This document shows positions 23,928 through 34,088 of a stretch of 38,727 nt of DNA, one piece after another. The translations under genes were made by a program, and so were the position numbers. This DNA comes from a bacterium BMS3Abin08 (GTDB taxonomy: Bacteria; Nitrospirota; Thermodesulfovibrionia; Thermodesulfovibrionales; JdFR-85), in the NCBI GenBank assembly GCA_002897935.1, contig BDTA01000021.1, positions 1 through 38,727 of the forward strand, in the 5' to 3' direction. Below the pieces are notes generated by a model, which ran no database searches, was not told the origin of the DNA, and saw only the letters and a program-made list of their open reading frames with translations. How positions within the stretch are numbered: position 1 is the stretch's first letter; each line of letters begins with the position of its first letter.

Positions 23928-24557
23928 CAAGGGTGCGGGACATCTCTCCCGTTCCCACATTCTGACAGGGATGTTGGAGAGTGGAGCGCTGAGAACCGGT
24001 CTTCCATTTCTCCAACACCATAAATTCCCCTCCCGAAGGCACCCTGGGAGAGACTGTGAACAAGAGAGATAATCCTTCCTCTTATAGGGGGATGATTGTA
24101 TCCTTTTGGTCCTTCTCCCCAGGACAACAGACTAATGCGTTCAATGTTCAACGGCCTGTCAAGCTCTCCGGCCAAAAGCAGGCACTTTCTTTGCGCTATG
24201 CCCTCTGCGCTGCTTCATCCCCGATTCAGGATCCGTCCGCTCATAATTCCCGGCATTTATTTCTTGCCGTCCCCACTCCACCCCGGCTTCCGGATGCTTC
24301 GATAGTATGATTATGCTAAAATATCAACGGGCTATTGTTTCAGTGGCCCGTAACTCATTCAAAGCCTGTCATGCCCCGAACGCTTCCGGGGAATCCTTCC
24401 CGGAAGAAAGATTCCCGACAAGCGGGAATGACACAACATGCACAATAATTTATGACGCTGTGTATAGATTTCACGAACTTAGTTCGGGATACAGCACGAC
24501 GATAACTGATCTGCTTGCTCTTTGAGCAACAGTCCGCATACGAATAACGGAGAGACC
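23928..24557. other. 630-bp gap with dispersed repeats
   Basis: No gene is supported; the short frames here lack ribosome binding sites and are low-complexity or antisense. Positions 24158-24178 repeat the 21-nt element found at 8234. Positions 24368-24434 hold a GTCATGCC/GGAATGAC inverted repeat of the dispersed type (CCCCGAACGCTTCCGGGG arm), followed by CTGTGTATAGATT at about 24461, as next to the other copies. Confidence 0.6.
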
Positions 24558-25841
24558 TTGCATTCACAAAATAGTGATAAAAAGAAACTCTTATACTGCT
24601 TTGGGTACGATCCTTCATATATCGACAACCTCTCATTTCAGATAAGTCATTTCAATTACGATGTCAGGAAGCTTTTGGATACCGCTACCCTGCTGAACAG
24701 TCTTAGCCTTGATTCTCCATCATGCGTGATAATAGATACATCCTTCAGCGGAGACGAATTGAGAGACAGGGATATCCTCTCCTCACTTAAACCCGGAGAT
24801 CAGGAAACATTTAAGCTGATCTTCGTTGCAGACAGGGGTGATGTAAAATCGAGGCTTAATGCGCTTCGTCTGGGGGCGGATGCCTATTTTGTAAAACCGG
24901 TTAATATGATTGAACTGATCGATGCTGTTGACGCACTTACCTCGGTAACGCTCCGTGACCCATACAGAATACTGATAGTGGATGACGATAAAAACCTCTC
25001 TACCTATCACTCCCTTCTCCTGAGGAGGGAGGGTATGATTACAGAGGTAGTGAATGAACCCTTAAATGTCTTTAATGTACTGTTTGATTTCAAGCCCGAT
25101 CTTATTCTCATGGATATGTACATGCCCTTGTGTAACGGCGACGAGCTGGCAAGGGTGATCCGGCAAATGAATGCATATTACTCCATACCGATTGTGTACC
25201 TCTCTGCAGAGAAGGATATATCAGTACAGCTTTCCGCCATGAGTATGGGTGGAGATGACTTTATCACAAAGCCCGTTGATCCTGATTATCTTATATCCTC
25301 GGTGACGATCAGGGCCGAAAGGATGAGGATAATACGGTCCTTTATGGACAGGGACAGTCTTACCGGCCTGTTGAATCATACCAAGACAAAGGAGCAGCTT
25401 GACATTGCCATCAGAAGGGTAAAGAGAGAAGAAGATGTTCTGGCTTTCGCCATGATCGATATTGATCATTTTAAAGAGGTCAATGATACCTACGGGCATC
25501 CTGCCGGAGATATGGTGCTGATTGCACTGTCAAGGCTCCTGCAGCAGAGGCTCAGAAGCACCGATATCATCGGCAGGTACGGCGGTGAGGAGTTTGCGGT
25601 CGTATTATACGGCACAAGCCCTGAGTCCGCATTCGCCACAATGGATGATATAAGAACGAGATTTGAAAATATCAAACACCATTACGAGGGCAGGAGCTTC
25701 CGCGTAACATTCAGTTGCGGGATTGCATCATTTCCGGACCATGCCGATGCACAGGACCTTAACAAGTCGGCTGATGTGGCGCTCTACAGGGCAAAAAGGG
25801 AGGGACGGAACAGGGTTGTTTTAAATACTCAACAAGAATAA
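24558..25841 (+). CDS. PleD-like diguanylate cyclase (REC-REC-GGDEF)
   Basis: The protein is 427 residues if it starts at the TTG at 24558 (GGAG 5 nt upstream); an in-frame TTG at 24522 has no such site. Receiver 1 (about 8-125) lacks the usual acidic pair near its start but keeps VIIDTSFSG and YFVKPVN. Receiver 2 (about 130-255) is complete: LIVDDDKN, LILMDMYMP, FITKPVD. The GGDEF domain (about 265-425) has FAMIDIDHFKEVND and an intact RYGGEEF active site, with RSTD five residues before GGEEF as the inhibitory c-di-GMP site. It should make c-di-GMP from two GTP upon phosphorylation of receiver 2. The gene is monocistronic and flanked by repeats. Confidence 0.9.
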   Translation: MHSQNSDKKKLLYCFGYDPSYIDNLSFQISHFNYDVRKLLDTATLLNSLSLDSPSCVIIDTSFSGDELRDRDILSSLKPGDQETFKLIFVADRGDVKSRLNALRLGADAYFVKPVNMIELIDAVDALTSVTLRDPYRILIVDDDKNLSTYHSLLLRREGMITEVVNEPLNVFNVLFDFKPDLILMDMYMPLCNGDELARVIRQMNAYYSIPIVYLSAEKDISVQLSAMSMGGDDFITKPVDPDYLISSVTIRAERMRIIRSFMDRDSLTGLLNHTKTKEQLDIAIRRVKREEDVLAFAMIDIDHFKEVNDTYGHPAGDMVLIALSRLLQQRLRSTDIIGRYGGEEFAVVLYGTSPESAFATMDDIRTRFENIKHHYEGRSFRVTFSCGIASFPDHADAQDLNKSADVALYRAKREGRNRVVLNTQQE

Positions 25842-25879
25842 TACAAGAAAATTCATAGGTTAAGCTTGCCTTCAGTAAC

Positions 25880-25954
25880 TGGAGCGGGCGACGGGATTTG
25901 AACCCGCGACCTTCAGCTTGGGAAGCTGACACTCTACCGTTGAGTTACGCCCGC
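25880..25954 (-). tRNA. tRNA-Gly (anticodon CCC), CCA encoded
   Basis: Read on the minus strand from 25954, the 7-bp acceptor stem GCGGGCG/CGCCCGC is perfect. The D arm contains AACGGTAGAGT, the anticodon stem TCAGC/GCTGA encloses the loop TTCCCAA (anticodon CCC), and the T arm is GCGGG-TTCAAAT-CCCGT, with one weak closing pair. The discriminator is T and CCA is encoded. It decodes GGG. No other tRNA is adjacent. Confidence 0.95.
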
Positions 25955-26772
25955 TTGAATCGATTACTGCCTGAAATGAAGCGACCACAGCCGTGAGTGT
26001 CTGAACCCCGGAGGGTGAACTTCACGTATATAGCGAAATAAGACCGGAATCGTCGAAAAAGTTCGCTCATTTCCCGTCTTAATAAGATATACAACCTCCC
26101 CGATAAAAATCAACTCATTTCCGGCAAGCCTTACAGCATAGCAATGTAAGGTTTTGATATTTTATCTTTATATTTGCCTCCAGCACTTCGGTGCTTTCGG
26201 CAAAGAACATTGTAAGGAAAATTTGATTTAATAGAATCTGTGTATAAAGTCGAAAAGTTGTCGTTATTTCGTCATTCCGGCTTGTCCGGAATCTGTCTTT
26301 AAGAAGGATTCCCGACTCGCTTCGCTTGCGGGAATGACAAATAACTGCAGTTTATACACAGACTTTTAATAGAGTCTGTGTATAAACTGCCGTTTTTTAT
26401 TCTTGTCATGCCCGAAGTTTGTAGTCGGGTATCCAGAACTTATTGATAAGAACGCTTTCGGGAAATGACGGAAAAATGACCGCTCTGCTCTCTGCGCTCA
26501 ATTTGACCCACAAGTCAAACGGCGGATTCGGGATAGGGCCTCAATTGACTTTTAGATGCTTATCTGATATATTTATAACATTTGAAGTCTCCGGTCAGGA
26601 GCTCTCCTCAGGTTTGAAAAAACCTGTCGGACCATACAGGGCTGAAAGGTGACATAAAGGATATGCTGAGACATTCGTTCTTTAAAAATCTATTGCACAG
26701 ACGATCCCTCTGCAATGCATCTTGCCTAAAGCCCCGACCTTTGGTCGGAGAGCTTGACTCCATGAAGGCCGA
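25955..26772. other. intergenic region rich in dispersed repeats
   Basis: No gene is supported in these roughly 800 bp; the longest frame (26443-26652) has no ribosome binding site and arises from repeat sequence. Three copies of a TCTGTGTATAAA motif occur at about 26237 (plus), 26351 (minus) and 26374 (plus). Two GTCATTCC-type inverted repeats lie at 26270-26340 and 26405-26469. The 20 nt at 26739-26758 are an inverted copy of the element at 8234 and overlap a CCGACC/GGTCGG hairpin just before the kinase gene. Confidence 0.6.
26229..26469. repeat. composite of GTCATTCC-type repeats bordered by CTGTGTATAAA
   Basis: The first unit is bounded by inverted copies of TCTGTGTATAAA and holds GTCATTCCGGCTTGTCCGGA, AAGGATTCCC and GCGGGAATGAC. 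A second unit, GTCATGCCCGAAG to GGAAATGACGGAAAAATGAC, follows a third motif copy. The same modules occur at five further intergenic sites in the window. Confidence 0.65.
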
Positions 26773-28266
26773 GTGGTTATAAGAAAAAAAGAAATAAAAC
26801 CCGTATGCGAATTCCTCTCCGTTCTCATAGGCCCCTTTGGTTTCTATGGACTCAACGGTGATATCCTTTATGTTACAGAGGGATTCGGCGATAGCAATGA
26901 AAAACCTCTTAGATATGATGTCCCGTTAAACAGCAGGCCCATTGGCCATGTCTCCGGATTTGATGAGAGACTGGAGACGGCTGCATCCATCCTTGGCCTT
27001 TTTCTGAAGAACCGGCAGGATAAAGAATCCCTGACAAAGCATACCCTTAACAAATACAGGGAACTTAATTTCCTTTCGGAAATCAGTGATATTCTGAGTT
27101 CCTCGATTGATATAGACGAAATACTGTGTGCCACCACAGCCAAATGCGGGGAAATAATGGGGGTCGAAAACTGTTCCGTCATGGTTATTGACGATAAAAG
27201 CGACGGGTTTTACATAAAGGCCGCATCGGGACGGATCGTTAATGAGAGGGTGCGGCTGGACTTATCCAACGGGATTGCAGGCAGGATCGTTAAAACCGGA
27301 AGGTCACTTATCGTTAACGAAACGGATCAGCACCCGGACTTTATAAGCGGTGGAGATGTGGCGATTAAATCCATGCTCTGTATACCCCTTAAGGTAAAGG
27401 ACAGGACCGTGGGTGTTTTAAACATGAGCAATAAGATAAGCGGGTTCTTCACGAGTGAGGACGAGTCTCTGATTATATCAATATCCTCCATGATCGCAGG
27501 TGCAATAGAATCCGCCCGCCTCTATGATGAAAAGATCAAGAACGAAAAGTTTGCTACCATAGGTCAGATGGCTGCAGGCATAATCCATGATATCAAGAAC
27601 CCCATGGCAACCATCAAGGGTTTTGCCGGGTTGCTGGGAGACCTGGAGTTTACACCCGGGGAGCGTAAGGAGTACAGCGGAATGATCGTGGATGAAGTGG
27701 ACAGGCTGGTTTCAATGCTTGAGGACCTCCTCTACTTTTCAAGGGGGTTCAAGGGTAGGTATAACATCCAAAGGACAAATATTCACGAATACCTCTCAGA
27801 GGTATGCAAACTGATCGAAAAAGACCTCTCAAGCAGGAACATCGATGTATCATTGAAAACAGCTTACAAAGGCGATGTATATATCGACAGGGAGAAGTTC
27901 AGAAGGGTCATCTATAATATAACCGGCAATGCAAGAGAGGTTATGCATGAGGGAGGGAGGCTTCTCATCAGTACCAGGGCCGCAGGTGATCAGGTGGAGA
28001 TACTGTTTTCAGATACGGGTGGCGGAGTGCCGGAAGAGATAATCGACGCCATCTTCGATCCCTTTGTGACTATGGGCAAAAAGTCGGGCACCGGGCTTGG
28101 CCTTGCCATAACAAAGAAGATTGTTGAAGACCACGGGGGTACGATAACCGCCGTAAATGGTAACCATTCAGGGGTCGAGGGGTTTAAGGGGGCCAACTTT
28201 GTGATAAAAATTCCCTTAAAAGACCACCCCGGCAGTACAAGGAGGAACGATGGATCCGTTGTGTGA
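26773..28266 (+). CDS. GAF-domain cytoplasmic sensor histidine kinase
   Basis: The 497-residue protein has no membrane segment. After an unassigned N-terminal region of about 95 residues comes a GAF domain (about 95-255; LNFLSEISDILSSSIDIDE, GIAGRIVKTG, SMLCIPLKV). Then follow a dimerisation helix with phosphoacceptor His273 in IIHDIKNPMATIKG and an ATP-binding domain ending near GTGLGLAITKK. The start is GTG at 26773 with GAAGG 4 nt upstream. The last 17 nt overlap the start of the PilB-like gene, so the two are translationally coupled and the fused receiver there is its most obvious phosphorylation partner. Confidence 0.88.
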   Translation: MVIRKKEIKPVCEFLSVLIGPFGFYGLNGDILYVTEGFGDSNEKPLRYDVPLNSRPIGHVSGFDERLETAASILGLFLKNRQDKESLTKHTLNKYRELNFLSEISDILSSSIDIDEILCATTAKCGEIMGVENCSVMVIDDKSDGFYIKAASGRIVNERVRLDLSNGIAGRIVKTGRSLIVNETDQHPDFISGGDVAIKSMLCIPLKVKDRTVGVLNMSNKISGFFTSEDESLIISISSMIAGAIESARLYDEKIKNEKFATIGQMAAGIIHDIKNPMATIKGFAGLLGDLEFTPGERKEYSGMIVDEVDRLVSMLEDLLYFSRGFKGRYNIQRTNIHEYLSEVCKLIEKDLSSRNIDVSLKTAYKGDVYIDREKFRRVIYNITGNAREVMHEGGRLLISTRAAGDQVEILFSDTGGGVPEEIIDAIFDPFVTMGKKSGTGLGLAITKKIVEDHGGTITAVNGNHSGVEGFKGANFVIKIPLKDHPGSTRRNDGSVV

Positions 28267-30508
28267 TGCATTAATCGAAGAAGGAATTATAACGGCTGAA
28301 CAGTTACAGGAGATAAAGGACGGCAAAAGGGCAGGGAGCGTTGTGCTCGAAATCCTTGACACTCTCTCCGTCGACGAAGAAAAGATTGTATCGGTATTTA
28401 CCAATCGTTTCGGCATTGGCAGGGCAGTACTGTCGGATATATTACCCGAAGCCCTGGAGGGGTATTCTGAAAAATCAGCCTTTAAATATATGAGTATTCC
28501 CTTTGACAGGGATGGGGGGCTGTTGAAGGTTGCCATGGTGGATCCCTTGAATTTTAACACGCTCCAGGACATCTCCTTTCTCACAGGCCTTTCCGTAATT
28601 CCCTATGCGGCAACAAGGGGAGAAATCCTCCAGGCCGTCAATACCTGTTACGAGATAAGCAGTGAACTTTCAACGGTCCTCGACAGGATCGAAGCATACG
28701 ATGAAGACAGCATAGGGCTGCTAAATGACAATCCGCATTCAGCTGCGGAGGTATTTCAAACAGGCGGGAGAATGGACGTCTCCGGTGAAGGGACCCTGTC
28801 AGCACCGGCTATTAAACTGGTTAACCTGCTCTTTAATGAGGCTACGGGATGCAGGGCAAGCGATATACATATAGAGCCCGGACAGAAGAAGGTGGATGTA
28901 AGGTTCAGGATCGACGGTGTATTAAAGACGCATATGGAGGTGCCGAAGTGGCTTCATTCAGCGCTTGTTTCGAGGATCAAGATCATGTCAAAGCTTGACA
29001 TAAGCAACAGGAAGACGCCGCAGGATGGTTCAATCAAGATCAGCGTAAAGGGTAATCCTGTCGACCTGAGGGTATCAACCCTTCCGACACACCTCGGAGA
29101 AAAGGTGGTTATAAGGCTCCTGAATCCCGAAAGGGGGGATCTCGAACTGAGAGACGGAGGAATCGATGATGAGGAATACGGAAGACTCAAACGGTCTTTT
29201 TCACAACCACAGGGGATGATCCTGGTGACGGGACCAACGGGCAGCGGCAAAACAACCACACTGCACGGGGTATTGAAGGAACTCAACTCCCATGAAACGA
29301 ATATCGTTACTATTGAAGATCCCGTTGAGTATGAACTGGAGGGGATAACGCAGGTACAGGTCAATGAAAAGGCGGGGCTGAATTTTGCCAACTCATTAAG
29401 ATCGATCCTGAGACAGGACCCGGATATTGTCATGGTAGGGGAAATCAGGGACAAGGAAACTGCAGAGATTGCCTTCAGGGCTTCAATGACAGGGCATCTC
29501 GTCCTCAGCACATTACACACCAATGATACAGCCTCAACAGTAACGAGGCTGCTTGATATAGGCATAGAACCCACTTTAGTGGCATCATCTCTCCTGAGCA
29601 TTGTAGCCCAGAGGCTTGTGAGGGTAAACTGCAAGCACTGCCTGGAGGGGTACAGGCCTGACGACGGGGTCTTTTCCCTGGTGCCGGGAATCAACAGTAA
29701 CGCACGTTTTGTAAAGGGAATGGGTTGTAAGAGGTGTAACGGTACAGGATACAACGGCCGTACCGCTGTATTTGAAATACTGGACATCAGCCCGGCAATA
29801 AAGAAACTGATACTGAATACCGCCCCGGAGAGTCAGATAAAAATGCAGGCGGCACAGGAGGGTATGAAGACACTGTTTGAGGCTGCTGCAGAGAAAGTCT
29901 ATCAGGGGATAACAACGATCGAGGAGGTTTTAAGGGTTATATCGATTGACGGCCCCGGGGAAAAGACATGTCCCGTCTGTAACACGCAGTACACAGGTAG
30001 TGATTGCCCCTGCAGCGAGTCTTCACAGGAGGACGACTGCAGTGCCTGTGGTAAGCGGCTTGATCTAAACTGGAAGTTCTGTCCCTATTGCGGGAAGACA
30101 AGGAAACCCTACAAAATACCGGAGATTCAGTCACTTATGAGGGTGCTCGTGGTTGACGATGAGCCCGGACTGCTTAAGATGGTGGAGATAGCACTGAGAC
30201 CTCTCACCCTGGATATCTACACTGCTCAGAACGGCAGGGAGGCTATTGAAAAGGCTTTCACCATAAAACCGAACCTGATCATCACGGATATCAATATGCC
30301 CGTAATGGACGGCTTTGAAATGATAAAGAACCTCAGAAGTCAGGTAAATACGATGTTTATACCGATTATCATCCTCTCTTCAAGGGATGCGGCCGAGGAC
30401 ATGCTCAAGGGATTCACATACGGTACGGACGACTATGTAACAAAACCCTTTGATTATCCGGAATTACAGGCGAGGGTCAAGCGGCTCCTCTACAGGACCT
30501 ACGGGTAA
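28250..30508 (+). CDS. PilB/GspE-type secretion ATPase fused to zinc-finger cysteines and a receiver domain
   Basis: The 752-residue protein has a MshEN/GspE N-terminal domain (about 1-150) and a type II/IV secretion ATPase domain (about 175-560). Walker A is GPTGSGKTTT near residue 327, then DPDIVMVGEIRD, GHLVLSTLHTNDT and the CxxC...CxxC zinc site (CKHC, CKRC). A cysteine-rich linker follows (CPVC, CPC, CSAC, CPYC; about 573-620), resembling one or two zinc ribbons. A complete receiver domain (about 629-752) closes it, with VVDDEPG, phosphoacceptor LIITDINMP and YVTKPF. PilB/GspE ATPases power pilus extension or secretion; a C-terminal receiver is unusual and suggests phosphorylation control. 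No pilin or pilC genes are in the window. Confidence 0.88.
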   Translation: MDPLCDALIEEGIITAEQLQEIKDGKRAGSVVLEILDTLSVDEEKIVSVFTNRFGIGRAVLSDILPEALEGYSEKSAFKYMSIPFDRDGGLLKVAMVDPLNFNTLQDISFLTGLSVIPYAATRGEILQAVNTCYEISSELSTVLDRIEAYDEDSIGLLNDNPHSAAEVFQTGGRMDVSGEGTLSAPAIKLVNLLFNEATGCRASDIHIEPGQKKVDVRFRIDGVLKTHMEVPKWLHSALVSRIKIMSKLDISNRKTPQDGSIKISVKGNPVDLRVSTLPTHLGEKVVIRLLNPERGDLELRDGGIDDEEYGRLKRSFSQPQGMILVTGPTGSGKTTTLHGVLKELNSHETNIVTIEDPVEYELEGITQVQVNEKAGLNFANSLRSILRQDPDIVMVGEIRDKETAEIAFRASMTGHLVLSTLHTNDTASTVTRLLDIGIEPTLVASSLLSIVAQRLVRVNCKHCLEGYRPDDGVFSLVPGINSNARFVKGMGCKRCNGTGYNGRTAVFEILDISPAIKKLILNTAPESQIKMQAAQEGMKTLFEAAAEKVYQGITTIEEVLRVISIDGPGEKTCPVCNTQYTGSDCPCSESSQEDDCSACGKRLDLNWKFCPYCGKTRKPYKIPEIQSLMRVLVVDDEPGLLKMVEIALRPLTLDIYTAQNGREAIEKAFTIKPNLIITDINMPVMDGFEMIKNLRSQVNTMFIPIIILSSRDAAEDMLKGFTYGTDDYVTKPFDYPELQARVKRLLYRTYG

Positions 30509-30653: not shown

Positions 30654-30946
30654 ATGATTGAAACAGGTGCGGGCTTGAACATATATTGAGATATGCCCTT
30701 GTTACACCTGAAGAACTGGCTTCAATCAAAATAGAGGCCATGGAGACCAGCAGGGACTTGAAGGACGTTTTAATAGAGAGAGGGGCCGTCAGTGAGGATG
30801 CACTCCTTTATGCCGTGAGTTCCGAACTCGGCATCCCCTTTGTCACACTTGAGCCGAATTCAATCGACAGGGATCTCTTCAGAACTCTGCCCGTGGAAGT
30901 ACTCAAGAGGTATAGATTCCTGCCCATGATCGAGGTGGATAGATAA
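30654..30946 (+). pseudogene. truncated, probably frameshifted GspE/PilB N-terminal domain fragment
   Basis: A strong AAGGAGG (30641) precedes the ATG at 30654, but that frame stops after 11 codons at 30689. The conserved reading, LRYALVTPEELASIKIEAME to LSIDRD-like and RYRFLPMIEVDR, runs in another frame from about 30662 to 30946, where only a TTG at 30686 could start. Joining the frames near 30672 gives a continuous MIETGAG-LEHILRYALVTPEEL, which looks like a proper GspE_N first helix. The product also stops right after RYRFLPM, where the domain normally continues, and no ATPase follows. If translated from the TTG it would be an 86-residue protein. It may be a decayed copy or a frameshift/assembly error. 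Confidence 0.5.
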
Positions 30947-30952
30947 TCTCCG

Positions 30953-33733
30953 ATGATACGTTTTAATCTCTTCACAAAGACTTTCCTTTTAATTCTCCTG
31001 ATTATAGTTTTCTTTTCGGCATTGATTTACACATTCTCCGTGCCACTCATCAAGGAGACGGTTTACGAGATAGAAGAGAATGCAGGAAAGACGATCCTCG
31101 ACAACGTATATGAACTCGTTCACAAGATCTCGATGGATCTTGAGGCCTACAGGGAATCCGCCTATGCGGCCCACAAAAGGGAATTAAGAAACATCATTGA
31201 AATCGTCGAATCTTATATTAACGACGTGCGTGCGGATGTGAAGAGCGGGCGTTTATCCGAAAAGGAGGCCAAAAAGAGTATACTGGACAAACTAAGGACC
31301 TTTAAATACGGCAGGAATGACTACATCTGGGTTTCAGACTACAACTCGGTACTCATATCCCATCCCGATCCAAGGCTGTACGGAAGGGATTTCTCCGGAA
31401 TTAGGGATGTCCGCGGAAACCTTATCGTCCCACCGATGGTAGAGATTGCCAGGAGGCGCGGGGATGGGTTTTACAGCTACTGGTGGCGCAGGCTCGGAGA
31501 AAAAGAGCCCATCGAAAAACTCTCCTATTTCAAGCTTCTTCCTCAATGGAAATGGGTTGTCGGAACCGGTGTATATGTAGACGACATAAAGAAAGAAGTG
31601 GCAAGGAGAAAGAAGAAGGCGATAGAGGAATTGAGGGGCATTTTGAGACATATCCGGATAGGCAAGACGGGTTACATGTTTATCTTTGATTCCAAAATGA
31701 ACATGATAATACATCCCAACAGGAACATAGAAGGAAAAAACATCTCGTCATTACTGGATCCTGTGACAGGGAAACCCATTGGTGAGGAACTCAAACACGC
31801 GGCAACTCAAAAAGACAATAAATTGATCTACAGATGGGACAAGCCCTCGGATCCCGGCAACTATATATATAAAAAGATCTCCTGGGTAAGGTATTTCAGG
31901 AACCTTGACTGGTATATCGCATCCTCGGTGTACCTGGATGAACTGGGTAAGAGTGCGGTAATACTCAAGAGGAGGATCCTTGGCACAACCCTGCTCATAC
32001 TGCTTCTCTCCGTATGTCTGGGCTATATCTTCGTAAGAAGGCTTGTTAATCCCCTCAGAAAACTCTCTGCAACGGCCCTGAGGGTACAGAAGGGAGACCT
32101 TACAGCCAAGAGCGATATACGGGGTAATGATGAAATCGGGGTTCTTGCCGGGGCCTTCAACAACATGATTGACCGGTTGAGATCACACATAGAAAACCTC
32201 GATGCAAAGGTCAGGGAAAGGACCATGGAACTCGAAGACGCTAACCGTGAGTTGAAGAGGATCGATGAGACCAAGTCCGCTTTCATATCGACGGTATCGC
32301 ACGAACTCCGCACGCCTCTGACTTCGGTACTGGGATTTGCCAACATCATAAAGAAGAGGCTTGAGGAGGTAATCTTTCCGGTAATAGACGATGGGGAGGC
32401 CAGGGTATCCCGCGCAGCCTCACAGGTAAGGCAGAACCTCGACATAATCATCTCAGAGGGTGAGAGGCTCACGAACCTGATCAACGACGTCCTTGACATA
32501 GCGAAGATAGAGGCGGGGAGGGTGGAGTGGAAGGACGAGGACGTAGACATCGCAGAGGTATTCAGACGTGCGGCTGTGACGACCTCGTCGCTGTTTCAGT
32601 CAAAGGGACTGTATCTGGAGGGAGAGGTTGAGGGCGGTGGACTCATAGTCCGCGGGGACCGGGACCGGATGATACAGGTGGTAACGAATCTCCTGAGCAA
32701 CGCCGTAAAGTTCACGGACGGCGGGGGAACGATAACCTACCGTATAAGGCGCAACGCCGGGTATGTACGCTCCGAGGTAGAGGACACGGGCAACGGCATT
32801 CCATCCGATATGCTTGAGAGGGTTTTTGAGAAGTTCAGGCAGGTAGGCGACACCCTGACGGACCGTCCGAAGGGAACGGGACTTGGTCTTCCCATCTGCC
32901 GTGAGATAATAAACCATCATGGCGGGAGGATCTGGGCGGAGAGTAAAGAGGGCGGGGGCAGCAGGTTCATCTTTGAACTGCCCCTGAAGGCGGCAGGGCA
33001 GGGTGGTCATACGGAGATACAGAGGGAGGTACTGTTGACGTCCATAGACAACCACATAAAGGGCCGGGCTCAAGGGGAGACGGTACTGATAGTGGACGAC
33101 GACGTATCCATACGGGTACTGTTAAGCCAGTATCTTCAGGAGAAGGGTTACAGGGCGGTAGAGGCGGTGGACGGCAAGGACGCAATAGGCAAGACCCGCG
33201 CTATGATGCCGGATCTCATACTTCTTGACATCATGATGCCGGATCTGAGCGGTTACGACGTACTGAGGGTACTGAAGAACGACGATACAACGAGGGAGAT
33301 CCCCGTTATAGTGATATCTGCTCTTGAAAACAGGGACAAGGGGCTGATGCTTGGTGCGGCCGACTACATCACGAAGCCGGTGGATGAGGAGCGGCTCTTT
33401 GACAGCATACAGAGGGTAATGAACGAGGGGCAGAGAAACAACAGGTGCAGGGTAATGATTATAGACCGCGACAGGGAGTCGTGCCGCGAGATTGCCGAGG
33501 CGATGAAGGGGAGGAATTTCGAGGTAATACAGAGCTGCTGTGATACGGAGGACATAAGGAAGGGGCTCGAGGCCACGCCGGATATAATACTCGTGGATAT
33601 GGGGCTGGTTGAGGACGGTTATATAAATGAGATCTGCAGGGAGGATTCCATCAGGGATTTAATGATAAAATCAAAAATACTCTATATCGTGAAAGGAAGT
33701 GAAGGAAATGTCGAAGATACTGATAGCCGATGA
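30953..33733 (+). CDS. Cache-domain hybrid sensor histidine kinase
   Basis: The 926-residue kinase has an N-terminal membrane helix (about 8-28) and a periplasmic region (30-340) with two Cache-like units: YIWVSDYNSVLISHPDPRLYG with WKWVVGTGVYVDDI, and GYMFIFDSKMNMIIHPN with LDWYIASSVYLDEL. A second helix (342-361) and HAMP follow, then the phosphoacceptor in SHELRTPLTSVLGF (about 448), the ATPase domain (DTGNGIPSDM, GTGLGLPICR) and a complete receiver (about 709-825; VDDDVS, LILLDIMMP, YITKPVD). A second receiver-like domain (833-926; IIDRDRES, IILVDMGLV) lacks the usual lysine and ends early. It overlaps the next gene by 26 nt. Cache domains sense small extracellular molecules. Confidence 0.92.
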   Translation: MIRFNLFTKTFLLILLIIVFFSALIYTFSVPLIKETVYEIEENAGKTILDNVYELVHKISMDLEAYRESAYAAHKRELRNIIEIVESYINDVRADVKSGRLSEKEAKKSILDKLRTFKYGRNDYIWVSDYNSVLISHPDPRLYGRDFSGIRDVRGNLIVPPMVEIARRRGDGFYSYWWRRLGEKEPIEKLSYFKLLPQWKWVVGTGVYVDDIKKEVARRKKKAIEELRGILRHIRIGKTGYMFIFDSKMNMIIHPNRNIEGKNISSLLDPVTGKPIGEELKHAATQKDNKLIYRWDKPSDPGNYIYKKISWVRYFRNLDWYIASSVYLDELGKSAVILKRRILGTTLLILLLSVCLGYIFVRRLVNPLRKLSATALRVQKGDLTAKSDIRGNDEIGVLAGAFNNMIDRLRSHIENLDAKVRERTMELEDANRELKRIDETKSAFISTVSHELRTPLTSVLGFANIIKKRLEEVIFPVIDDGEARVSRAASQVRQNLDIIISEGERLTNLINDVLDIAKIEAGRVEWKDEDVDIAEVFRRAAVTTSSLFQSKGLYLEGEVEGGGLIVRGDRDRMIQVVTNLLSNAVKFTDGGGTITYRIRRNAGYVRSEVEDTGNGIPSDMLERVFEKFRQVGDTLTDRPKGTGLGLPICREIINHHGGRIWAESKEGGGSRFIFELPLKAAGQGGHTEIQREVLLTSIDNHIKGRAQGETVLIVDDDVSIRVLLSQYLQEKGYRAVEAVDGKDAIGKTRAMMPDLILLDIMMPDLSGYDVLRVLKNDDTTREIPVIVISALENRDKGLMLGAADYITKPVDEERLFDSIQRVMNEGQRNNRCRVMIIDRDRESCREIAEAMKGRNFEVIQSCCDTEDIRKGLEATPDIILVDMGLVEDGYINEICREDSIRDLMIKSKILYIVKGSEGNVEDTDSR

Positions 33734-34088
33734 CGAACCCCATATAAGGCTCCTTCTGGAACAGACCCTTGAGGATTTCGAGGAGGCAGGCGTGGAGATC
33801 ATCACCGCTGACAACGGCTTGGATGCACTCGATGTGATCAGGAATGAGAGGCCCGAACTCGTTTATCTCGATGTTATGATGCCGGGGATGAACGGCTTTG
33901 AGGTCTGCAATACGGTAAAAAACGAACTCGGGATAGACGGTGTTTATATAGTGATGCTGACTGCAAAGGGACAGGAGCTTGATAAGGTCAAGGGCAGTGA
34001 TGTTGGTGCGGATATATATATGACAAAGCCCTTTAACCCCGACAGGATAATAGATAAGACAGCGGAAGTCCTCAAGATACAGCTGTAA
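33708..34088 (+). CDS. single-domain CheY-like response regulator
   Basis: The 126-residue protein is one receiver domain: ILIADDEPHIR, phosphoacceptor in LVYLDVMMPGMNG, the conserved threonine position in IVMLTAKGQE and lysine in YMTKPFN. I chose the ATG at 33708 because AAAGGAAG lies upstream at normal spacing; a GTG three codons earlier is too close. It has no output domain, so it acts by phospho-dependent protein contact or as a phosphate relay or sink for the overlapping hybrid kinase gene. Confidence 0.92.
   Translation: MSKILIADDEPHIRLLLEQTLEDFEEAGVEIITADNGLDALDVIRNERPELVYLDVMMPGMNGFEVCNTVKNELGIDGVYIVMLTAKGQELDKVKGSDVGADIYMTKPFNPDRIIDKTAEVLKIQL

What the first reader, a model, noticed from the sequence alone, without database searches (positions are those of the whole stretch)
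28250..30508. PilB/GspE ATPase carrying zinc ribbons and its own receiver domain
The frame runs without break from a GspE N-domain through an intact ATPase, a second cysteine cluster (CPVC, CSAC, CPYC) and a complete receiver with phosphoacceptor and lysine. It is translationally coupled to a GAF kinase gene. A pilus or secretion motor under direct phosphorelay control would be a distinct way to regulate type IV pilus machinery. The N-domain lacks the RLG motif of c-di-GMP-binding MshEN domains, so the receiver may replace that input.
Basis: partly seen in the sequence, partly recalled or inferred. Interest (0 to 1): 0.65.

Follow-up and report, generated by a model that had tools for sequence, protein, structure and literature searches.

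The report
Pilus-type motor ATPase with built-in receiver
This bacterial gene fuses a pilus/secretion motor ATPase to a two-component receiver domain, so a partner kinase could switch the motor directly; the same fusion, in a conserved cluster of signalling genes, occurs in eight related genomes, so it is a real but uncommon protein and not a sequencing error.

Summary
Window 28250-30508(+) is one intact 752-aa frame: degenerate MshEN/GspE N-domain, T2SSE ATPase with all catalytic boxes, eight-cysteine double zinc ribbon, and a PhoB/PleD-like receiver with all its key residues. Eight other genomes (9 of 176 in the order, two families; none outside it in a 396-genome phylum sample) carry the same architecture with every catalytic and phosphorelay residue invariant. 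A frameshift or assembly artefact is excluded.

The gene sits in a conserved locus with no pilus structural genes: GAF histidine kinase, diguanylate cyclase, usually further kinases and receivers, and variably a J-domain protein, a PilB-like pseudo-ATPase without Walker A, a PilT-type ATPase and a [NiFe]-hydrogenase. In the window the pseudo-ATPase is only a truncated remnant. A second, differently built fusion (REC-MshEN-T2SSE-zinc ribbon) occurs in 21 of 176 genomes of the order.

Best reading: an auxiliary assembly motor working on a pilus or secretion platform encoded elsewhere, gated by phosphorylation instead of c-di-GMP binding. Architecture and conservation are shown; phosphotransfer, gating and target machine are inferred. 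It is a new variant of a known kind (PilB/GspE ATPases), in a distinct deep clade, not PilB proper.

The parts
28250..30508 (+). GspE/PilB-type ATPase with C-terminal double zinc ribbon and receiver (752 aa)
   Evidence: Open frame; Pfam T2SSE 448 bits, Response_reg 92 bits, MshEN 52 bits; same architecture in 8 other genomes
28250..28654 (+). Degenerate GspE_N/MshEN region (aa 1-135), c-di-GMP motif lost
   Evidence: MshEN at 64-135; no strict or relaxed c-di-GMP motif in any homolog
28799..29935 (+). T2SSE ATPase core (aa 184-562), catalytic boxes and own tetracysteine zinc site intact
   Evidence: Pfam PF00437; residues invariant in 9/9; nearest solved structure Geobacter PilB 5tsg
29957..30097 (+). 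Double zinc ribbon (aa 570-616), eight cysteines
   Evidence: DZR/Zn_Ribbon_1 matches just below cut-off; all eight Cys kept in 9/9, window's fourth shifted by one; rest of the segment only 25-38% identical
30143..30481 (+). Receiver domain (aa 632-744), PhoB/PleD-like
   Evidence: Pfam PF00072 92 bits; D636, D637, D680, S710, K732 invariant in 9/9; 70-79% identity, as high as the ATPase
26773..28266 (+). Soluble GAF-HisKA-HATPase histidine kinase, overlaps the ATPase gene by 17 nt
   Evidence: Pfam; homolog in the same locus in all 8 loci where the flank is present
24522..25841 (+). PleD-like diguanylate cyclase, two receivers and GGDEF
   Evidence: Pfam; homolog in the locus in G006, G007, G002, G155, G153
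30662..30946 (+). Truncated remnant of the PilB-like pseudo-ATPase (N-terminal domain only, no good start codon)
   Evidence: 47% identical to residues 26-112 of the 474-aa G007 protein, no other close copy in the genome; alignment
30953..33733 (+). dCache-HAMP-HisKA-HATPase-receiver hybrid histidine kinase
   Evidence: Pfam; homologs at the same place, with GAF/PAS input in family f13
33699..34088 (+). Stand-alone receiver protein
   Evidence: Pfam; 65-76% identical copies in six other loci

Best explanation
The protein is an auxiliary assembly-type motor ATPase of the PilB/GspE superfamily whose activity or assembly is set by phosphorylation of its own receiver. Signals reach the soluble GAF kinase encoded just upstream, which phosphorylates Asp680 of the fused receiver and possibly the two-receiver diguanylate cyclase beside it. 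As in PleD- and PhoB-type proteins, the phosphorylated receiver probably dimerises through its alpha4-beta5-alpha5 face and so favours or stabilises the active hexamer; the zinc ribbons would be a rigid linker or docking surface between ATPase ring and receiver. The motor works on a pilus or secretion platform encoded elsewhere, in place of or alternating with the resident assembly ATPase. Relatives with the full locus also encode a non-catalytic PilB-like subunit and a PilT-type ATPase. Shown: architecture, conservation, loss of the c-di-GMP motif, locus, absence of structural genes. Inferred: kinase-receiver pairing, gating mechanism, target platform.
For: Fusion conserved in 9 genomes with every ATPase and phosphorelay residue invariant, receiver as conserved as the ATPase, dN 0.16-0.20 in the receiver against saturated synonymous change. 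GAF kinase in the locus in 8 of 8 testable cases. c-di-GMP motif absent in all fusions, largely kept in the resident PilB. Own genome: four assembly-type ATPases against three T2SSF platform proteins. PilM core present in 7 of 9 carriers. PilT-type partner above its NCBIfam cut-off (449 against 319 bits) in G007, with homologs in G002 and G160. Receiver keeps PhoB-type dimer-interface positions E738, D728, R742 in 9/9 (the positions in PhoB are from memory). A separate REC fusion in the same order, with kinase and receiver genes around it in the four loci read, shows that putting such ATPases under receivers recurs.
Against: No pilin, platform, secretin or alignment gene lies in the locus. No PilM-family hit above cut-off in the window's own genome (96% complete). 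The ATPase is neither PilB nor GspE by curated cut-offs and is rejected as one clade with PilB. The window copy has a shifted zinc-ribbon cysteine, M718 in place of Lys at one dimer-interface position, and its pseudo-ATPase is truncated, so this copy may be drifting. No biochemical data.
Confidence: 0.5

Rival explanations
1. A signalling ATPase that no longer drives a filament: the locus is a cytoplasmic phosphorelay/c-di-GMP hub in which PilB- and PilT-like ATPases act as oligomeric scaffolds or switches for kinases, cyclase and, in some relatives, a hydrogenase.
For: No structural pilus or secretion genes seen in the nine loci; many receivers and kinases; a catalytically dead PilB-like partner; hydrogenase genes in the locus in G006, G150, G152, G153, G160; deep separate clade.
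Against: Full conservation of ATPase catalysis and an active-looking PilT-type partner are expected of motors; ATPases of this superfamily with known function drive filaments or secretion (general knowledge).
Confidence: 0.25
2. The receiver is a localisation or partner-docking module: phosphorylation targets the motor to a pole or a sensor complex (as receiver proteins such as FrzS and PilG act in other species) and does not change ATPase activity.
For: Receivers often work by protein-protein contact (general knowledge); N-terminal REC fusions of the order sit beside a Ras-like GTPase reminiscent of MglA polarity systems.
Against: No such GTPase was seen in the C-terminal-receiver loci; the GTPase match itself is weak (Arf 24 bits).
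Confidence: 0.17
3. A type II secretion ATPase variant for a particular exported substrate.
For: Slightly better NCBIfam score to GspE (565) than PilB (556).
Against: Both below cut-off; no gsp genes in the locus; other GspE-like ATPases exist in the genome, one beside its platform and pseudopilin-like genes on contig C83.
Confidence: 0.08

Closest known systems
PilB, type IVa pilus extension ATPase (Geobacter 5tsg/5tsh)
   Same: GspE_N-type N-domain, T2SSE core with all catalytic boxes and the zinc tetracysteine, aligned over residues 6-566
   Different: Extra double zinc ribbon and receiver; c-di-GMP motif lost; own deep clade, not with the order's PilB; no pil genes in the locus
MshE / MshEN-type c-di-GMP-regulated ATPases (PMC4624772, PMC5013675)
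   Same: An assembly ATPase controlled by an attached signal-input domain
   Different: Input would be phosphorylation at a C-terminal receiver; both 24-residue MshEN motifs are missing
Proteins combining MshEN and receiver domains (noted in PMC5013675; Bdellovibrio Bd2402)
   Same: Receiver and MshEN-type domain in one chain are already known
   Different: The text I could read does not describe a complete T2SSE ATPase with a C-terminal receiver; its supplementary table of architectures was not available to me
N-terminal fusion REC-MshEN-T2SSE-double zinc ribbon
   Same: Receiver plus ATPase plus zinc ribbons, beside histidine kinases
   Different: Receiver at the opposite end; clade relationship unresolved (AU p 0.098); different locus with Ras-like GTPase
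PleD / PhoB response regulators
   Same: Receiver sequence and dimer-face residues resemble theirs
   Different: The output is a motor ATPase, not a cyclase or DNA-binding domain

Membership tests
PilB/GspE (T2SSE) secretion ATPase superfamily | T2SSE domain with Walker A, Asp box, Walker B Glu and His box | tested here: met
   PF00437 448 bits; motifs in all full-length homologs, key residues 9/9
PilB/GspE (T2SSE) secretion ATPase superfamily | Zinc tetracysteine in the C-terminal domain | tested here: met
   C461, C464, C493, C496 invariant 9/9
PilB equivalog (type IVa extension motor) | Score above TIGR02538 cut-off (675.65 bits) | tested here: not met
   555.7 bits
PilB equivalog (type IVa extension motor) | Groups with the order's PilB proteins | tested here: not met
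   Held-together tree rejected, AU p 0.0175
PilB equivalog (type IVa extension motor) | Powers pilus extension through PilC | not testable with these tools
   No pilC in the locus; needs genetics
GspE equivalog (type II secretion motor) | Score above TIGR02533 cut-off (630.25 bits) | tested here: not met
   565.1 bits
MshEN c-di-GMP receptor | Two 24-residue RLGxx... motifs | tested here: not met
   Absent in 8 of 8 full-length homologs, strict and relaxed
Two-component response regulator | Receiver with acidic pair, phosphoacceptor Asp, Ser/Thr and Lys | tested here: met
   D636/D637, D680, S710, K732, 9/9
Two-component response regulator | Phosphorylated by a cognate kinase | not testable with these tools
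   Conserved locus neighbour kinase only
Double zinc ribbon (DZR) | Four CxxC-type pairs / Pfam match above cut-off | tested here: inconclusive
   22.7 bits against 27.3 for DZR; eight Cys kept in all, one spacing changed in the window

The most novel reading that the evidence does not exclude
The locus is a dedicated, signal-wired pilus motor cassette: a phosphorylation-gated extension ATPase, a catalytically dead PilB-like subunit and a PilT-type retraction ATPase that together reprogramme a pilus machine in trans in response to the cell's redox or H2 state (a [NiFe]-hydrogenase lies in the locus in five of nine carriers) and to c-di-GMP. It would be direct phosphorelay control of a pilus motor through a covalently attached receiver.
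Probability: 0.2. Interest if true: 0.78.

Novelty: new variant of a known kind. Interest (0 to 1): 0.55.

Why it matters
Pilus and secretion motors are known to be controlled by c-di-GMP binding, PilZ/FimX-type partners and transcription (reviewed in PMC11656802, where the word 'receiver' does not occur in the main text). A receiver covalently attached to the motor would put filament assembly one phosphotransfer away from a sensor kinase and make control of motor activity testable in vitro with two purified proteins. The pseudo-motor and hydrogenase neighbours suggest a larger, undescribed control cassette.

Tried and rejected
Frameshift, assembly error or chimera: rejected, same fusion in nine genomes from two families. 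Separate translation of the receiver from an internal Met at 629: rejected, the Met is not conserved. Fusion as an order-wide PilB: rejected by cut-offs and tree. All zinc-ribbon ATPases as one clade: unresolved to weakly rejected (AU p 0.0488 for three classes, 0.098 for the two REC classes; long branches). Strict mutual exclusion of the two REC fusions: rejected, G150 and G155 have both. The named-genome scan returned only receiver or zinc-ribbon fragments in unrelated taxa; its peptide patterns were too strict to be informative, so absence outside the phylum is not shown. Plasmid search: one record covers over 80% of the query, but only to residue 625 in the row listed, so no receiver. Literature searches for T2SSE/PilB/GspE with a receiver found no described example. 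Structure prediction was not run: the relatives come from genome-search loci, which the stated rule does not list as permitted, and a single-sequence model would be poor.

Full report
OBSERVATION. The frame at 28250-30508(+) encodes 752 aa without a stop. Pfam places an MshEN match at 64-135, T2SSE at 184-562, zinc-ribbon matches at 570-616 (just below the curated cut-offs) and a receiver at 632-744. A ribosome-binding site AAGGAGG precedes the ATG, and the start lies inside the last 17 nt of a GAF histidine-kinase gene.

CONSERVATION. Searching 61 relatives gave full-length homologs of the same architecture in G006, G007 and G002 at 63-67% identity. A profile of the zinc-ribbon-plus-receiver part found 9 carriers among 176 genomes of the order (four in the window's family f1, five in family f13), with E-values of 5e-88 or better and nothing else down to 1e-45. 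A 396-genome sample of the phylum added none outside the order. In all nine, the ATPase catalytic residues, the ATPase tetracysteine, the eight zinc-ribbon cysteines and the receiver residues D636, D637, D680, S710, K732 are kept. The receiver (70-79% identity) is as conserved as the ATPase (73-80%), while the zinc-ribbon segment outside the cysteines is free to vary (25-38%). Non-synonymous change is low (dN 0.16-0.20 in the receiver) while synonymous change is saturated. The fusion is therefore real and under selection. In the window the fourth zinc-ribbon cysteine is shifted by one residue and one dimer-interface Lys is Met, so this copy is slightly off the consensus.

C-DI-GMP INPUT. MshEN binds c-di-GMP through two 24-residue motifs (PMC5013675). 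Neither the strict nor the published relaxed motif occurs in any of the eight full-length fusions, whereas the genome's own PilB on contig C118 has one relaxed match and one near match. That the receiver replaces this input is inference.

LOCUS. Comparing loci gives a module: PleD-like diguanylate cyclase, GAF kinase, ATPase-receiver, J-domain protein, PilB-like protein of 458-478 aa, PilT-type ATPase, one or two stand-alone receivers, second hybrid kinase. The GAF kinase is present in all eight loci whose flank is available (in G007 the cyclase gene stands between it and the ATPase). The PilB-like protein has an MshEN domain and a T2SSE fold without Walker A, Asp box or catalytic Glu, but keeps a CxxC...CxxC zinc site; it is best called a pseudo-ATPase. 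At E <= 1e-50 it was found in 3 of 121 sampled genomes, all carriers of the ATPase-receiver, and in G152 by locus comparison. In the window only its N-terminal part survives, at 30662-30946, without a good start codon and with no other close copy in the genome. In f13 genomes G150, G152, G153, G160 and in f1 genome G006 the locus holds [NiFe]-hydrogenase subunits: Vhu/Mvh-like with an HdrA/MvhD-like protein in G150, G153 and G160, another type in G006. The G006 large subunit ends at the last ligand motif DPCLVCTVH, without the usual C-terminal extension, as I recall for H2-sensing hydrogenases; this is a lead, not a test. In none of these loci did I see pilin, platform, secretin or alignment genes; not every neighbouring frame was scanned against Pfam.

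TARGET. The window's genome has four assembly-type ATPases (contigs C21, C83, C122, C118) and three T2SSF platform proteins (C118, C47, C83). The C118 ATPase sits with PilT- and PilC-like genes and a PilR-like regulator, the C83 one with a platform and pseudopilin-like genes (read from sequence). The fusion is thus the one without an obvious partner. PilM is present in seven of nine carriers but was not found above cut-off in the window's genome, which is 96% complete in 123 contigs.

FAMILY. NCBIfam scores are 565 bits for GspE and 556 for PilB, both below the equivalog cut-offs. The closest solved structure by sequence is Geobacter PilB. In a tree of 35 ATPase cores the fusions form one clade (100/100) outside the order's PilB and GspE groups; holding them with PilB is rejected (AU p 0.0175), and their relation to other zinc-ribbon ATPases is unresolved. 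They belong to the superfamily but to neither named equivalog.

A SECOND FUSION. The order also has REC-MshEN-T2SSE-double-zinc-ribbon proteins, in 21 of 176 genomes. The four loci read hold kinase and receiver genes and, beside them, a Ras-like GTPase. Two genomes carry both fusions. Receiver-bearing ATPases of this kind have thus probably arisen more than once here, though the tree does not settle it.

MECHANISM. The receiver resembles PhoB and PleD receivers and keeps interface positions E738, D728, R742 (their PhoB counterparts are from memory). I propose phosphorylation-driven receiver dimerisation that stabilises or activates the hexamer. Rivals are a purely signalling scaffold and a localisation module. 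No step after the sequence has been tested.

NOVELTY. The combination of MshEN with receivers is noted in the literature (PMC5013675), and c-di-GMP control of such ATPases is known. I found no description of a complete PilB/GspE ATPase with a C-terminal receiver, but the library holds open-access papers only and that paper's supplementary tables could not be read. New variant of a known kind.

Noticed in passing
window 30662-30946 (+): Truncated remnant of a PilB-like pseudo-ATPase whose intact homologs (458-478 aa, no Walker A) are found in G002, G007, G152 and G160; the PilT-type gene that follows it elsewhere is missing here.
   Followed up: yes
L024, L025, L031, L074-L077: A separate REC-MshEN-T2SSE-double-zinc-ribbon fusion beside histidine kinases, receivers and a Ras-like small GTPase; 21 of 176 genomes of the order.
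   Followed up: partly
L071:5720-8175, L101:12271-16123, L102:3-1297, L103:1324-5227, L104:4953-8859: [NiFe]-hydrogenase genes (with an HdrA/MvhD-like protein in L101, L103 and L104) inside the ATPase-receiver locus; the G006 large subunit lacks a C-terminal extension.
   Followed up: partly
window 25842-26772: About 930 bp without a convincing protein gene between the cyclase and the GAF kinase, holding tRNA-Gly(CCC) at 25880-25954(-); in G006 the two genes are nearly adjacent.
   Followed up: partly
L027, L034 (L083, L084): ATPases with two MshEN domains and a C-terminal double zinc ribbon, next to hybrid histidine kinases, without a receiver of their own.
   Followed up: partly
L071:8229-8858, L072:4562-5221: J-domain (DnaJ-like) protein directly after the ATPase-receiver gene; role in the locus unknown, absent from the window.
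   Followed up: no
L103:1045-1293, L100:7935-8180, L104:4659-4904, L101:16129-16365: Conserved small protein of about 82 aa directly before the second kinase in family f13; no Pfam match for the L103 copy.
   Followed up: no
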